64,000 nucleotides of DNA from Qipengyuania proteolytica (lineage in GTDB: Bacteria > Pseudomonadota > Alphaproteobacteria > Sphingomonadales > Sphingomonadaceae), in the NCBI RefSeq assembly GCF_019711565.1, contig NZ_JAIGNN010000003.1:124001-188000 (forward strand), in the 5' to 3' direction. The notes beneath the pieces were generated by a model, which saw only the letters and a program-made list of their open reading frames with translations, had not been told where the DNA came from and did no database searches. The position numbers were made by a program, and so were the translations under genes. Positions 32,615-45,511 of this stretch are shown here, one piece after another. Positions within the stretch are counted from its first letter, which is position 1. Each line of letters begins with the position of its first letter.

Positions 32615-33034
32615 ATGAGCCTGCGCCCGTTCCACCTCGCCTTTCCCGTCGACGACCTTGCCGAAGCGCGCCGCTTCTACGGCGAGACCATGGGCTGCGC
32701 GGAAGGGCGCAGCAGCGACGAGTGGATCGACTTCGACTTCTACGGCCACCAGATCGTGGCGCATCTCGCCAAGGGCCAGGCGGGCGACCGCGCGAGCAAC
32801 CATGTCGACGGCCACGGCGTGCCGGTGCCGCATTTCGGCATCGTGCTCAGGATGGAGGACTGGCAGGCGCTGGCCGAACGGCTTCAGGCGGCAGGCGTGG
32901 ATTTCGCGATCGCGCCGACGATCCGCTTCAAGGGCCAGCCCGGCGAACAGGCGACGATGTTCTTCCGCGACCCCAGCGGCAATGCGTTGGAGATGAAGGC
33001 TTTCGCCGACGACGCGATGCTGTTTGCGACCTAG
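32615..33034 (+). CDS. VOC (glyoxalase/bleomycin-resistance) family protein
   Basis: 139-aa vicinal oxygen chelate protein with two beta-alpha-beta-beta-beta halves. Candidate metal ligands are [10 protein letters not shown] (His), [10 protein letters not shown] (His) and [12 protein letters not shown] (Glu). The layout resembles dioxygenase-type VOC proteins of unknown substrate (PFAM glyoxalase). The 287 bp upstream carries a C-rich tract (GCCTGCCCCCCGCCCCCC) and must hold divergent promoters for this gene and the GST gene; I see no other feature in that gap. Confidence 0.88.
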
Positions 33035-33041
33035 CCCGCGC

Positions 33042-33734
33042 TCAACACACAGGCGCGGCGTAATCCAGCAAGCGTTCGTCCGTTATCGAAATCGGCTTCT
33101 TGGTCGTCACGACCGCGAAGAAAACTGTCTGTCCGACTGCGACTTCCACCTTTTCTGGCTTAGCCTTGCCATCGGCGATCATGACCACGGACCCTTCGGC
33201 TAGCTGCCTGCGCCATTTGTGGACGTCGGCCTCGCATTTGCACTGCGGATCGACAACCTTGATAACGCCCGACAACTTGCTGCCATAGGCATCCTTCCAG
33301 TGATATTCCCCCGGTGCCCCGAAGGCATGGCTGTAGCCGCACTCATTCGTCAGGCGAGCACTGTCGAAGAAATCCTGATCGCCGACGACCGCGAAGGGTG
33401 ACGACTTCGCGCCAGGGCCGTTCCACAGGACCAGGTCGCCGACCGCTATGGTCAGTTTCCGTTCGTCGGGGACAAATCGTGCGCCGGTTCCTTTGACGAT
33501 CACATTGTGCTGCACCATCTCCGGCTTGCGCCCGGATTTCTTCTGGCCCTTCTCGCCATCCTTCCCGCCGCCTTCGACCACGATCATGAATGGCCGGTCG
33601 TCGTTGAACGCAGCAGCGTGCGAGGGAAGGATGTTATAGGAATACCGCCCTGGACGCATGAAACGCTGGGCATAGCAATCCGTCCGGCCGAGGGCGCGGC
33701 TGTCGAGCATGTTGTCGTTCATTGTCATGGTCAT
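33042..33734 (-). CDS. Cupredoxin-like protein, last gene of the unknown four-gene operon
   Basis: 230-aa protein, no signal peptide. Two beta-rich halves are visible. The first has a cupredoxin-like pattern (IAVGDLVLWNGPGAKSSPFAVVG ... HAFGAPGEYHWKDAYGSKLSGVIKVVD), as in plastocyanin-type domains where the last strands follow an F-x-x-PGEY motif. The second (VAVGQTVFFAVVTTKKPISITD) may be a shorter repeat. The usual Cys-His-Met copper cluster is not evident, though ECGYSHAF provides Cys and His; CKCEADVHKW lies between the halves. AAGGAA precedes a GTGATG start pair (33737/33734). It is 19 bp downstream of the Cys-periodic protein gene and convergent with the VOC gene. Function unknown. Confidence 0.65.
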   Translation of the reverse strand: MTMTMNDNMLDSRALGRTDCYAQRFMRPGRYSYNILPSHAAAFNDDRPFMIVVEGGGKDGEKGQKKSGRKPEMVQHNVIVKGTGARFVPDERKLTIAVGDLVLWNGPGAKSSPFAVVGDQDFFDSARLTNECGYSHAFGAPGEYHWKDAYGSKLSGVIKVVDPQCKCEADVHKWRRQLAEGSVVMIADGKAKPEKVEVAVGQTVFFAVVTTKKPISITDERLLDYAAPVC

Positions 33735-33753
33735 CACCTGGTTCCTTTTGCGG

Positions 33754-34557
33754 TCAGGCCGAAATGTCGGCGGTGAGCACCAGCTCGTCCTCACCATCGC
33801 TGTTGGCTACGGATGCGGCGATCGCATCAATGAGTATATCGACCTGCGGATCGACAGCGCCTTGCGCCGGCAGCACCGGGAAGACACGCGGCTGGTCGTA
33901 GATCGGGATCTGCATCCCGCTGATGAAGGGGGTCAGTATCGGTCCCAGCAGGCCCGTCAGACCGGCGATGCCGATCGCCGCCAGGATGGTGTTTGCAGCG
34001 ATCGCCAGAAACGGCCCGATGAACGGGATCGCCAGCAAGATCGGCGTCAGCGCCAGACCGATCGCGGCAAGCAGTGCCGCGGTGGTCAGCCCGAACTGCA
34101 GGTTCGGCACGCCCACGATGATCGCGCGGGCCTCCCAATTTCCGGAGACGAGGCTGGTCTGGAGCCGGAAGTCGGCATCGGCCTTCACGAAGTCCGAAAA
34201 CGAGACCGGGACGGTGATCGTCGGCCAGTCGATGCAGATGCGCGGCGTACAGACCCGCCCGACGCAGGGAATGTTGACGCAGACCTGCGGCAGGCAGAAA
34301 TCGGGCAGAATATCGCTCAGGTCGATGCCGATACTCAGGCTGAGACTCCAGTTAAGGCGTAGTTCCTCGAGCCTGATGATGTCCGGCGGGATGAGATCGA
34401 CATCGCCGTTCACCAGCGAAGCGGTGACCGAATAGCTTGCCAGGAATGGCCCGAGATTGTCGGACCCGCTCGCCGATTGCGGGGGGATGAGGGCGATGAC
34501 CGTGTCGAGGAGCTTGTTGGCTCCGGTCTCGTCGATTGCCGCAGTGATCTCTGCCAT
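33754..34557 (-). CDS. Hypothetical protein with period-5 cysteine ladder and long hydrophobic domain
   Basis: 267-aa protein I do not recognise. Residues 1-25 form an amphipathic helix (ITAAIDETGANKLLDTVIALI). A beta-rich segment follows (SYSVTASLVNGDVDLIPPDI, LRLNWSLSLSIGIDLSDIL). Then five Cys at 88, 93, 98, 103 and 108 are spaced exactly five residues apart (F-C-L-P-Q, V-C-V-N-I, P-C-V-G-R, V-C-T-P-R, I-C-I-D-W). Residues about 157-213 are almost wholly hydrophobic, Gly/Ala/Ile/Pro-rich, resembling a membrane hairpin. The end is acidic (DGEDELVLTADISA). No signal peptide. AAGGAGA precedes ATG. It is the third gene of the operon. Confidence 0.7.
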   Translation of the reverse strand: MAEITAAIDETGANKLLDTVIALIPPQSASGSDNLGPFLASYSVTASLVNGDVDLIPPDIIRLEELRLNWSLSLSIGIDLSDILPDFCLPQVCVNIPCVGRVCTPRICIDWPTITVPVSFSDFVKADADFRLQTSLVSGNWEARAIIVGVPNLQFGLTTAALLAAIGLALTPILLAIPFIGPFLAIAANTILAAIGIAGLTGLLGPILTPFISGMQIPIYDQPRVFPVLPAQGAVDPQVDILIDAIAASVANSDGEDELVLTADISA

Positions 34558-34579
34558 GGTTGGTCTCCTTGCCGAGGGG

Positions 34580-35305
34580 TTAGACGTTTCCGCGCATCTT
34601 GATCTGGTCGTCCTCGATCAGCGGGCCGACGACGGGGATGAGCTGGAAGGCGCCCGCGCGCAGGGCCCGCAGCGGCAGGCGAATCTCGGCCAGCGCCGCC
34701 TGAAGGACCATGAAGAGCAGGCATTCCAGGAAGGATTCGAGCCCGTCCGGCTCGATGTCGACGATCTCCACCTGGTCGACGACGAGCGCGACGGCATCTT
34801 CTCCGCCCATGGCGATTACACGCTGGAGGTGGCCAAGCAGGAACACGCGCAGCTTGAAGCAGGTCAGCTCGCTGAGCGGATGATCGCGCTCGTCACGGTC
34901 CGGGTCCCTCGGCCGGTCGTCACTCGGCTTGTGACCACGGCGGGGGTCGAAGGGGCGCGGGTCCTTCGGATCGATCTGCAACCTGCGGCAGTCGATGCAC
35001 AGCTCGACTTCGATCTGCCCGCTGAACTGCCCGGGTCCCATCGAGAGTTCGGGCGGCAGCGCATTGTCCTGATCGAACAGGTCGATTTGCGGGATGCCCA
35101 GGACGATCCGCCAGTTGATGCCGCCAGGAACGCCGGGAAAGGGAATTGCGGGAATGGCCGTCGCCGAGACGGTGGTCACTGGCACGAAGCTCGGCGATCC
35201 GTAGACAAGGTAGCGCGGGCGATCGGTACAGAATGCCGTAATCAGATCGTTAAGCGCGTCCTCGTGGACACTCGCGAAAACCTCCTGGGCTTCGGTGAGA
35301 CTCAT
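34580..35305 (-). CDS. Hypothetical protein, possible TULIP/BPI-like fold
   Basis: 241-aa protein without signal peptide. An N-terminal helix (EAQEVFASVHEDALNDLITAF) precedes beta-rich sequence (INWRIVLGIPQIDLF, FSGQIEVELCIDC). A charged, Pro/Arg/Asp-rich loop lies near residues 111-145, then more strands (LTCFKLRVFLLGHLQRVIAM, AVALVVDQVEIVDI). A C-terminal helix and LPL-turn-strand run as LESFLECLLFMVLQAALAEI, RLPL, GPLIEDDQIKMRGNV. A helix followed by IxLPL and a final D-D-x-I-x-M-x-G strand recalls TULIP lipid-binding proteins; this is inference from pattern, not homology. Very strong ribosome binding site AAGGAGGAA. ATGA overlap with the upstream 62-aa gene. Confidence 0.7.
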   Translation of the reverse strand: MSLTEAQEVFASVHEDALNDLITAFCTDRPRYLVYGSPSFVPVTTVSATAIPAIPFPGVPGGINWRIVLGIPQIDLFDQDNALPPELSMGPGQFSGQIEVELCIDCRRLQIDPKDPRPFDPRRGHKPSDDRPRDPDRDERDHPLSELTCFKLRVFLLGHLQRVIAMGGEDAVALVVDQVEIVDIEPDGLESFLECLLFMVLQAALAEIRLPLRALRAGAFQLIPVVGPLIEDDQIKMRGNV

Positions 35306-35490
35306 GGCTTTCCTCCTTCGACGAGATGCGGACGACGGATCGAGGGATGGTGGCCGGTGCCTGCCGCTTGCCGGGCCGGGCCGCGATCACGGCGCGGAAA
35401 GGATGCCGGGTGGGCACGATGTCGGCGGCGGACTTCGCTGCGTGGGAGTAGCGCCGCCAGAATAGCCAAACAAATTGCCAAGAAGGTCAT
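35302..35490 (-). CDS. Small single-span membrane protein, first gene of the operon
   Basis: 62-aa peptide beginning MTFLAICLAILAALL, one hydrophobic helix of about 14-16 residues, then a strongly basic Arg/His/Pro-rich tail (PRSEVRRRHRAHPASFPRRDRGPARQ). GGAGG sits 7 bp before ATG 35490, which decides this start over ATG 35523. Its stop overlaps the next start (ATGA), so it is translationally coupled to the 241-aa protein. It may be a membrane anchor or merely a leader peptide; the frame has the right start signals but no recognisable family. Confidence 0.5.
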   Translation of the reverse strand: MTFLAICLAILAALLPRSEVRRRHRAHPASFPRRDRGPARQAAGTGHHPSIRRPHLVEGGKP

Positions 35491-35760
35491 CGATACCTCC
35501 AGCCTGTGTAAATGTATTTTCACACGCCAGAGGTCATTTAAGCGGGGCGTGCGCGTCTTCTTGCCGATCTCCTATTGAGAAACGACAATAATAAGGTTCG
35601 CCAAGCGCCCGATATTTTATCGCGAAAGGGGCAGTTTTACGCCTTAGTACTGGCGACTCGCCCGATTCATCTGCGGAAATGTGTACACTGATTGGTTAAC
35701 AAATCGTAAATAAAATTGGTTAACGCAATGATAACGGACCGGGTCGTTGCTTTTCAGCGG
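35491..35760 (-). promoter_or_regulatory. AT-rich leader of the unknown operon with direct and inverted repeats
   Basis: This gene-free stretch (35491-35833) is the most AT-rich part of the window. It contains the imperfect inverted repeat TGTGTAAA-TGTA-TTTTCACAC at 35505-35525, next to the ribosome binding site of the first operon gene. Further upstream are the palindrome GTGTACAC at 35681-35688 and two copies of ATTGGTTAAC at 35691-35700 and 35715-35724, 24 bp apart. The last part (35760-35833), downstream of yihA, shows nothing notable. The repeats look like operator sites; the regulator is unknown. Confidence 0.5.
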
Positions 35761-35833
35761 TGAGCCGTGAAGCGAGCAGAAGTGCTGCGAAGGGTGTTAG
35801 CCCTGATGGGTCGACGAGTCTCACGTGCTTGGG

Positions 35834-36478
35834 TCAGACCCCCGCGTCCGCCAGCACCGCCGCCCTCAGCGCGCCGATGCCCATGCCCTTTTCCGCGCTG
35901 GTGACGTGGACTTCGGGATAGGCGGCGACGTGCTTGCGCGCCTCGGCTTCGGTCGCGGCGACGACCTTTTCGAGCTCGCTCGCCTTGATCTTGTCCGCCT
36001 TGGTGAGGACGACGCGGTAGCCAACGGCCGCCTCGTCGAGCATCTTCATCATCTCGCGGTCGACATCCTTCGGGCCATGGCGGGCATCGACCAGCACCAG
36101 CGTGCGCGCCAGCACCGGGCGGCCGCGCAGATAGGTCTTCACCAGCGCCTTCCACTTTTCGACCACCTTCACCGGCGCCTTGGCAAAGCCGTAGCCCGGC
36201 ATGTCGACGAGGCGGAACAGCGTCGGATCGCCGACCTCGAAGAAGTTAAGCTCCTGCGTGCGGCCCGGCGTCACCGAGGCGCGGGCGATCGCCTTGCGCC
36301 CGGTGATCGCGTTCAGCAGCGTGCTCTTGCCCACGTTCGAGCGTCCGCACAGCGCCACTTCGGGTACCGTCGGTTCGGGCAGGAACTTGAGCTGCGGGGC
36401 CGAGAGGAGGAATTCCACCCGGCCCGAAAACAGCTTGTTCGCGCGCCTTTCCAGCGTGGCGAGTTCGGCCTCGTCCAT
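35834..36478 (-). CDS. yihA: Ribosome biogenesis GTP-binding protein YihA/EngB
   Basis: 214-aa essential-type GTPase acting in 50S subunit assembly. G1 is CGRSNVGKSTLLNAITG, the G2 region TPGRTQELNFF, G3 VDMPGYGFAK, G4 TKADK, G5 TSAEKGMG. The N-terminal LEFLLSAPQLKFLP-type segment is also characteristic of the family. Its ATG shares one base with the yidC stop (TGATG), so it is coupled to yidC as the last gene of the rpmH-rnpA-yidD-yidC-yihA series. Confidence 0.96.
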   Translation of the reverse strand: MDEAELATLERRANKLFSGRVEFLLSAPQLKFLPEPTVPEVALCGRSNVGKSTLLNAITGRKAIARASVTPGRTQELNFFEVGDPTLFRLVDMPGYGFAKAPVKVVEKWKALVKTYLRGRPVLARTLVLVDARHGPKDVDREMMKMLDEAAVGYRVVLTKADKIKASELEKVVAATEAEARKHVAAYPEVHVTSAEKGMGIGALRAAVLADAGV

Positions 36479-44770: not shown

Positions 44771-45325
44771 TCAGGCGGCGTTTTTGGCGCGGCGCAGGCT
44801 TTCGATGGCGATCACGTCGCCGAGGCCCAGCTCGCTCGCGGGCTGCGCGCGCGAGCCGTCGGCACGGATGCCCAGATTGCCACGCTCGACCAGCGCGAGG
44901 TCGGCAGGGCCGAGAATCCGGCCGTCGTGGCTGAGGATCGAGGTCGGGCCGATCGGCAGGCGGTCGCGTTCGTCGACCAGCACCGGATTTTCCACCACCT
45001 CCGCGCCGTATTTCTGACCCCACTGGCGCAGCGCCACCATGGTGGGCAGCAGGTCGAAGCCCTTGTCGGTCAGGCGGTATTCGATCTTGCGGCGATCGTC
45101 CGCGCAAGGATCGCGGCGCAGGATCCCGTGTTCGACCAGCTTGGCGAGGCGGTTGGAAAGGATGTTGCGGGCGATCCCCAGCTCGCTGAGGAATTCCTCG
45201 AAGTGGTGCAGGCCGTTGAAGCTGGCGCGCAGGATCATGAACGACCAGCGTTCACCCATGACCTCGAGCGCCTGAGGCAGGCCGCATTCGGTCAGTTCGC
45301 GCAGCGGTTCGCGGATGTCACCCAT
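44771..45325 (-). CDS. HxlR-family winged-helix transcriptional regulator
   Basis: 184-aa regulator. The HxlR domain (about residues 10-105) has CGLPQALEVMGERWSFMILRASFNGLHHFEEFLSELGIARNILSNRLAKLVEHGILRR and the wing RRKIEYRLTDKGFDLLPTMVAL. A C-terminal 75-residue extension (ENPVLVDERDRLPIGPTSILSHDGRILGP) of unknown role follows. It is divergent from the CC_3452-type gene across a 186-bp AT-rich region with a GCAAC-GG-GTTGC palindrome, and could control that gene and itself. The stop overlaps the frame of the small gene downstream. Confidence 0.93.
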   Translation of the reverse strand: MGDIREPLRELTECGLPQALEVMGERWSFMILRASFNGLHHFEEFLSELGIARNILSNRLAKLVEHGILRRDPCADDRRKIEYRLTDKGFDLLPTMVALRQWGQKYGAEVVENPVLVDERDRLPIGPTSILSHDGRILGPADLALVERGNLGIRADGSRAQPASELGLGDVIAIESLRRAKNAA

Positions 45326-45331
45326 AAATTC

Positions 45332-45511
45332 AGTCCCCTTCCTGCAACCTATCTAACCCGAAAATCAGGATTGCGAAAGTTTTTCAAAAATTGGGTTGCC
45401 AAACGAAACCTAAAGTCATAGGTAGCGATTCGCAACGGGTTGCTATTTGAAACTCAATTGCATGAAAAGCAAGCCCTGTTGAACAAATTGCAAGTCAGGA
45501 AGGACCTCCCC
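45332..45511. promoter_or_regulatory. Divergent promoter region with GGTTGC repeats, candidate HxlR operator
   Basis: AT-rich intergenic DNA between the HxlR gene and the small exported protein gene. It holds the 12-bp perfect palindrome GCAAC-GG-GTTGC at 45432-45443, plus single GCAACC (45343 area) and GGGTTGC (45390 area) half-sites. Recurrent half-sites in a divergent regulator/target gap are typical of autoregulated HxlR-type systems; no binding has been shown. Confidence 0.4.

What the first reader, a model, noticed from the sequence alone, without database searches (positions are those of the whole stretch)
33042..35760. Unrecognised four-gene operon with lower GC and a repeat-rich leader
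Four minus-strand genes with strong ribosome binding sites (62-aa single-span basic peptide, 241-aa, 267-aa and 230-aa proteins) are tightly packed, GC-poorer than neighbours, and preceded by the most AT-rich DNA of the window. None of the three large products has a signal peptide or a family I can name; they combine a possible lipid-binding fold, a Cys-ladder/hydrophobic protein and a cupredoxin-like protein. Such a set does not match any known pathway that I know.
Basis: partly seen in the sequence, partly recalled or inferred. Interest (0 to 1): 0.75.

Follow-up and report, generated by a model that had tools for sequence, protein, structure and literature searches.

The report
Travelling three-gene lipid-binding protein cassette
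Three unnamed bacterial genes, which together look like a lipid-handling protein set, seem to travel as one block between very distantly related bacteria, so they probably form a working unit.

Summary
The operon is real. B (241 aa), C (267 aa) and D (230 aa) match no Pfam or NCBIfam family. Searching with C alone gave 13 relatives, from Alpha- and Betaproteobacteria and the phyla of an Acidobacteria and an Anaerolineae MAG. All 13 keep B-C-D in order on one strand, and the genes diverge in step (12 compared). The cassette is rare in sampled genomes. In the window it fills an EngB-VOC gap whose content differs in each of eight genus relatives, so it was probably acquired horizontally.

C is predicted as a TULIP-like (BPI/LBP/P47-type) lipid-binding domain with invariant cysteines and an almost charge-free helical pair; structural scores are moderate. 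B is perhaps a second, divergent one (weak). D is a cupredoxin fold without copper ligands. The 62-aa ORF is not conserved and the leader is not repeat-rich. A large protein, E, adjoins 3 of 13.

Best reading: a cytoplasmic or membrane-docked lipid-binding complex, in form like a small orfX-p47 cluster but not a member by sequence. The function is inferred, not shown.

The parts
34580..35305 (-). B, 241 aa: conserved first gene; possibly a divergent TULIP-like protein (weak)
   Evidence: Homologues directly before C in 13 of 13 relatives; AF2 model only pLDDT 57.6; best but insignificant structural rows are LBP, BPI and YceB; profile similarity to C insignificant, P 0.093 and 0.025
33754..34557 (-). 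C, 267 aa: predicted TULIP-like domain with four invariant Cys and an almost charge-free helical pair
   Evidence: AF2 pLDDT 84, pTM 0.67; Foldseek BPI E 8.5e-4 but TM-score only 0.28; VIA top ten rows all TULIP-protein entries, Z 7.2-5.1; Cys columns; hydropathy
33042..33734 (-). D, 230 aa: cupredoxin-fold protein without the type 1 copper ligands
   Evidence: Profile hits to amicyanin E 9.6e-5 and pseudoazurin 9.5e-5; ligand columns counted
35302..35490 (-). A62: small ORF with one hydrophobic span, ATGA overlap with B; not conserved, status uncertain
   Evidence: Good SD (GGAGGT) but GC3 0.59; no tblastn hit in 9 relatives
35491..35833 (-). AT-rich leader (GC 0.50) with one promoter-like match (35757-35728) and a 10-nt direct repeat ATTGGTTAAC at 35691 and 35715
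   Evidence: no such repeated pair was found in the 500 nt upstream of B in the 12 relatives checked

Best explanation
B, C and D are a three-gene unit that moves as a block (shown: order, spacing, correlated divergence, sporadic spread; horizontal transfer is the inference from these) and that makes a hydrophobic-ligand-binding protein complex (inferred). C is a TULIP-like domain: a curved beta-sheet around a helix, with a hydrophobic helical pair where BPI has its second helix (predicted structure; the comparison with BPI's helix order is recalled). I propose that this pair docks C on or in a membrane and that C takes up a lipid or another hydrophobic molecule (inferred). B, possibly a diverged TULIP-like partner, would pair with C to complete a tube (inferred, weakly supported), and D, a copper-free cupredoxin fold, would serve as binding adaptor or lid rather than as a redox protein (inferred from the lost ligands). 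None of the three shows an obvious signal peptide by eye, so the complex is expected on the inner face of the membrane or in the cytoplasm unless exported by another route.
For: Gene order in 9 of 9 loci and 4 of 4 further loci, all found through C only. Distance matrices of B, C and D correlate at 0.92-0.93 over 13 loci, window included and L028 left out (0 of 2000 permutations). Codon position 3 differs most in 36 of 36 window-relative comparisons. Fold of C. Hydrophobic pair: best 19-mer 2.33-2.65 Kyte-Doolittle in 10 of 10 of the close subfamily, without a charged residue in the best 19-mer of any of the 10 and with none in both best 19-mers of 8 of 10. D cupredoxin. Empty and variable site.
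Against: VIA Z is under 8, which the tool says can mean only a common arrangement, with rmsd 5.1-8.1 A in the top ten rows; Foldseek TM-scores to BPI are only 0.28-0.33 (query-normalised) with rmsd 12-14 A. Only 10 sequences fed the model. B's model is poor and the B-C profile match is insignificant (hhalign probability 0.6% and 1.9%). No profile hit of B or C to any solved structure at E<=10. In the three divergent C proteins the helical region is less hydrophobic and carries charges. No ligand, localisation or complex is shown, and correlated distances are partly expected from relatedness alone.
Confidence: 0.5

Rival explanations
1. Membrane-active effector: the charge-free helical pair of C inserts into a target membrane (like the hydrophobic hairpin of a pore former), with B and D as carriers or chaperones, as orfX-p47 products accompany toxins.
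For: Hydropathy of C; structural neighbours include P47 and OrfX complexes, whose genes occur with toxin genes (PMC7020563: title, start of abstract, passages and section 2.2); horizontal spread at a variable site.
Against: Apart from E, no flank ORF recurs among the nine loci and the window in the part I saw of an all-against-all comparison (ORFs of 70 aa or more, E<=1e-6, middle of the listing cut); no signal peptide seen by eye; the hydrophobic pair is weaker in the divergent subfamily.
Confidence: 0.2
2. Anti-phage or other defence cassette at a gene-turnover site.
For: Sporadic distribution and variable site; a TIR-domain gene near L003.
Against: No PADLOC match at E<=1 for 8 proteins; no nuclease, NTPase or sensor family in the Pfam scans; the TIR gene is seen at one locus only.
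Confidence: 0.08
3. Envelope or storage role inside the cell: the proteins coat or load hydrophobic inclusions (membrane vesicles, lipid or polymer granules) under stress.
For: No obvious signal peptides (by eye); hydrophobic C; hosts named are mostly environmental genera (recalled).
Against: No storage-polymer or lipid gene recognised by eye in the flanks printed (part was cut, and most flank ORFs were not run against a family library).
Confidence: 0.17
4. Redox cassette: D is an electron carrier and the cysteine ladder of C is a metal or disulfide centre.
For: Cupredoxin profile match; four Cys columns invariant in 10 of 10 C proteins.
Against: Type 1 copper Cys, Met and first His are absent in 10 of 10 D proteins and the second His in 9 of 10; no redox partner recurs in the flanks compared (listing partly cut).
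Confidence: 0.05

Closest known systems
orfX-p47 gene clusters (P47, OrfX1-3)
   Same: Small cluster, found across unrelated bacteria, coding for TULIP-type proteins of unknown role (PMC7020563, PMC6791001, passages read); P47 and OrfX entries are among the nearest structures of C
   Different: B and C match no Pfam model, so not the P47 family; 241 and 267 aa instead of two TULIP-like domains; cupredoxin-fold third member; no toxin gene recognised in the window's flanks
BPI/LBP/CETP (eukaryotic TULIP proteins)
   Same: Predicted topology of C: strand, helix, long curved strands, helix, strand
   Different: No signal peptide seen, one domain per gene, Cys-rich insert, charge-free helical pair, no sequence match to solved structures
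YceB (DUF1439) and other bacterial TULIPs (DUF2140, DUF2993, DUF4403; PMC6791001)
   Same: Bacterial TULIP fold; YceB aligns with Z 5.6 over 144 residues
   Different: YceB has an N-terminal lipid anchor (PMC6791001 passage); no Pfam hit of B or C to these families
Amicyanin, pseudoazurin, plastocyanin (cupredoxins)
   Same: Profile match over about 80 residues of D
   Different: Copper ligands lost; extra C-terminal segment; no signal peptide seen

Membership tests
TULIP superfamily (protein C) | strand-helix-curved beta-meander-helix-strand fold | tested here: met
   AF2 pLDDT 84 with that order of elements; Foldseek BPI E 8.5e-4, prob 0.99, but TM-score 0.28; ten of the top ten VIA rows are TULIP-protein entries, Z 7.2-5.1, rmsd 5.1-8.1. 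Moderate only: predicted model, Z under 8
TULIP superfamily (protein B) | same fold | tested here: inconclusive
   pLDDT 57.6; best Z 4.5; Foldseek E 0.16 to LBP
TULIP superfamily | binds lipid or hydrophobic ligand | not testable with these tools
   needs purified protein
P47/OrfX2 family | sequence match to the Pfam model of P47 | tested here: not met
   no Pfam family at E<=10 for window B or C; for the divergent B and C proteins scanned (one B, three C) one unrelated weak row (HutF_N, E 0.036, L029 C). HMMER filters may hide very weak matches
orfX-p47 cluster | p47 and orfX genes, often beside toxin genes | tested here: not met
   no Pfam match to P47; window neighbours are EngB, YidC, VOC and GST; a toxin search of all flanks was not run
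DUF1439/DUF2140/DUF2993/DUF4403 bacterial TULIPs | Pfam profile match | tested here: not met
Cupredoxins (protein D) | cupredoxin fold by profile | tested here: met
   amicyanin E 9.6e-5, pseudoazurin 9.5e-5; window D alone has no Pfam hit, and no structure of D was predicted
Type 1 copper proteins (protein D) | His-Cys-His-Met copper ligands | tested here: not met
   columns mapped from the HMM alignment onto A3 and counted: Cys column is Asp in 10 of 10, Met column Leu/Ile/Val in 10 of 10, no His in the first-His region in 10 of 10, second His column His only in L010 (Gly in 9). Ligand identities recalled
Known or candidate defence systems | PADLOC model match | tested here: not met
   0 families at E<=1 for 8 proteins

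The most novel reading that the evidence does not exclude
B and C are the two halves of a split BPI-like lipid tube made as separate proteins, with D as a cupredoxin-derived lid, forming a mobile bacterial lipid-transfer machine anchored by the hydrophobic helical pair of C and sometimes extended by the large protein E.
Probability: 0.25. Interest if true: 0.8.

Novelty: new variant of a known kind. Interest (0 to 1): 0.6.

Why it matters
TULIP proteins carry lipids in eukaryotes, and the passages read in PMC6791001 name only a handful of bacterial families. A three-gene block that keeps its order across distant bacterial phyla while staying rare suggests a portable function under selection. 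It may also offer a toxin-free setting for asking what orfX-p47-like clusters do.

Tried and rejected
Phage or plasmid cargo: no tblastn match of C in 72,556 plasmid and 50,697 phage records, none confirmed in IMG/VR contigs, and only insignificant PHROGs rows (E 0.053 or worse). Defence system: no PADLOC match. A GroES-like hint for D (NCBIfam 0.01, PHROGs 0.23) falls on the C-terminal segment and is far below cut-off.

E as an obligatory fourth member: within the fetched flanks it lies beside the cassette in L003, L006 and L031 only. A search with the E of L003 found it in 2 of 10 genomes (G572 and G575) and not in G000 or the 7 other seed genomes. In six further loci it stands without B, C or D within the stretch fetched; one of these genomes, G684, does carry the cassette, on another contig (L029). 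A possible relict E before B in L005 is a weak match and was left open.

Shared regulatory repeat: the ATTGGTTAAC pair does not recur upstream of B in the 12 relatives checked. B-C homology by profile-profile comparison stayed insignificant. The structure of D could not be predicted because both prediction jobs went to B and C. L028 was left out of the distance comparison because its B gene is split by an in-frame stop. Only the window's own genome was searched with B, and no genome set with D. Papers: one search listed 8 papers, of which two were opened; one search returned none; one search returned only PMC7020563. None of the listed titles or passages seen describes this cassette.
Full report
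What is there. The window carries, on the minus strand, B (34580-35305), C (33754-34557) and D (33042-33734), preceded by a 62-aa ORF, A62 (35302-35490). The genes are 22 and 19 nt apart. Their region holds the two 1-kb bins of lowest GC in the window, and their GC3 (0.818, 0.817, 0.74) is below that of all eight neighbour genes examined (0.824-0.925). None matches Pfam at E<=10; NCBIfam gives only a sub-threshold GroES row for D.

Recurrence. A scan of genome contigs with C alone returned 9 loci, from Sphingobium, a Proteobacteria MAG, Methylocapsa, Sphingomonas, Methylibium, Variovorax, an Acidobacteria MAG, an Anaerolineae MAG and a Rhodovulum MAG. All 9 carry B before and D after C on the same strand. 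Genome searches with a C profile added L027, L028 and L029 from the phylum of the Anaerolineae MAG and L031 from the phylum of the Acidobacteria MAG; all 4 again have B-C-D (in L028 B is split by an in-frame stop). So 13 of 13 relatives keep the order. A62 has no tblastn hit in the 9. The reverse test, searching sets of genomes with B or D, was not run.

Rarity. C was found in 1 of 196 genomes of the order (the window's own), 1 of 398 of the phylum (own), 4 of 301 of the phylum of G579, seed included, 2 of 297 of the phylum of G578, seed included, 2 of 140 of the family of G577, both known seeds, and 1 of 124 of the family of G574, the seed. The samples overlap in part, and all but the last two searches used a query or profile of the close subfamily only.

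History. Identity of C to the window is 78% in Sphingobium, 76% in Methylocapsa (Hyphomicrobiales), 69% in the betaproteobacterium Methylibium, but only 48% in a Rhodovulum MAG. On that reading the order does not follow the hosts and points to horizontal transfer; ancient presence with many losses is less likely but not excluded. Over 13 loci (window plus 12, L028 dropped) the distance matrices of B, C and D correlate at 0.916-0.929, with 0 of 2000 permutations as high; relatedness inflates this figure, but it fits a common history. Third codon positions differ most in 36 of 36 window-relative comparisons, as expected for genes kept by selection, though the distant pairs are near saturation.

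Site. Of nine genus relatives fetched, none has a tblastn hit of A62, B, C or D in the stretch around EngB, and eight keep both EngB and VOC. In those eight the gap between EngB and VOC runs from 160 to 5031 bp, and no two of the nine gaps, window included, share similarity by blastn or by blastp of their ORFs at E<=1e-3. The gaps hold, for example, cold-shock-like, LysR-type, sensor-kinase-like or multicopper-oxidase-like ORFs (names by eye, not by family search). The cassette therefore sits at a place of gene turnover. Phage-type integrases (L006, L011) or a transposase (L008) lie within the fetched flanks of 3 of the 9 loci (other flank ORFs were not scanned systematically).

Proteins. C: AF2 model with mean pLDDT 84 and pTM 0.67. 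Foldseek's best match is BPI (E 8.5e-4, prob 0.99), but with a TM-score of only 0.28 and rmsd 14 A. The ten best VIA rows are LBP, BPI (two entries), P47, two BoNT-NTNH-OrfX2 complexes, YceB, two OrfX1-OrfX3 complexes and CETP, Z 7.2 to 5.1. The tool warns that Z under 8 may reflect a common arrangement, so I hold the TULIP call at about 0.75. Cys 88, 93, 103 and 108 are invariant in 10 of 10; with the divergent subfamily added, three of these columns are Cys in 9 of 9 and one in 8 of 9. The two best hydrophobic 19-mers of C are free of charge in 8 of 10 close members, with one charge in the other two, while the three divergent ones carry charges. B: the model is poor (57.6), so the TULIP reading of B rests on weak rows and on an insignificant profile match with C (P 0.025, probability 1.9%). 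D: cupredoxin by profile in both the close set and the enlarged set. With the amicyanin ligands mapped onto the alignment, the Cys, Met and first His are missing in 10 of 10 and the second His in 9 of 10. I saw no signal peptide at the start of B, C or D; no dedicated predictor was run.

Partner E. A protein of 760-780 aa without a Pfam or NCBIfam family lies before B in L003 and L006 and after D in L031. It was not found in G000. Relatives of E also occur in six loci without B, C or D in the stretch fetched; one of those genomes (G684) has the cassette on another contig. E is an occasional companion.

Leader. At 300-400 bp resolution the stretch upstream of B is the most AT-rich of the window. 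It has one promoter-like match (1 found in 32900-36000, 0.5 expected in shuffles) and one exact 10-nt direct repeat. It is not rich in repeats.

Mechanism. Shown: a conserved three-gene unit with correlated divergence at a variable site. Predicted: TULIP-like C and cupredoxin-fold D. Inferred: horizontal mobility, a lipid-binding complex at a membrane, B as partner of C and D as a non-redox adaptor. The closest described thing is the orfX-p47 cluster. PMC7020563 (start of abstract, passages and section 2.2 seen) describes it in Gram-positive and Gram-negative bacteria and says that OrfX1, OrfX2 and P47 attach to lipids in vitro while the biological roles are unknown. PMC6791001 (passages seen, one of them from the abstract) treats P47/OrfX2, YceB, DUF4403, DUF2140 and DUF2993 as bacterial TULIPs. 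B and C match none of these by Pfam, so I file this as a new variant of a known kind, not a member. Literature searches showed no description of the cassette; they cover open-licence papers only.

Noticed in passing
window 33035-35833 and L048-L052, L054-L056: The EngB-VOC interval is a gene-turnover site: it holds unrelated content in each of eight genus relatives, from 160 bp (nearly empty) to 5 kb with a multicopper-oxidase-like and an acyltransferase-like ORF (names by eye).
   Followed up: partly
L003:2899-5181, L006:2921-5242, L031:1294-3636: E, a Cys- and Trp-containing protein of 760-780 aa with FNPQPxPP-like motifs (repeated in L006 and L031) and no family, beside the cassette in three loci and without it in L068-L073.
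   Followed up: partly
window 35691-35724: Two exact copies of ATTGGTTAAC 24 nt apart just downstream of a promoter-like match: a possible operator, not seen in relatives.
   Followed up: partly
L028:8116-9102: The B gene of this relative is interrupted by an in-frame stop.
   Followed up: no
window 45300-45500: Second strongly AT-rich stretch of the window (GC 0.40-0.46 at 150-200 bp).
   Followed up: no
L003:10553-12400: TIR-domain protein (615 aa) next to a 183-aa ORF, about 3 kb beyond the cassette.
   Followed up: no
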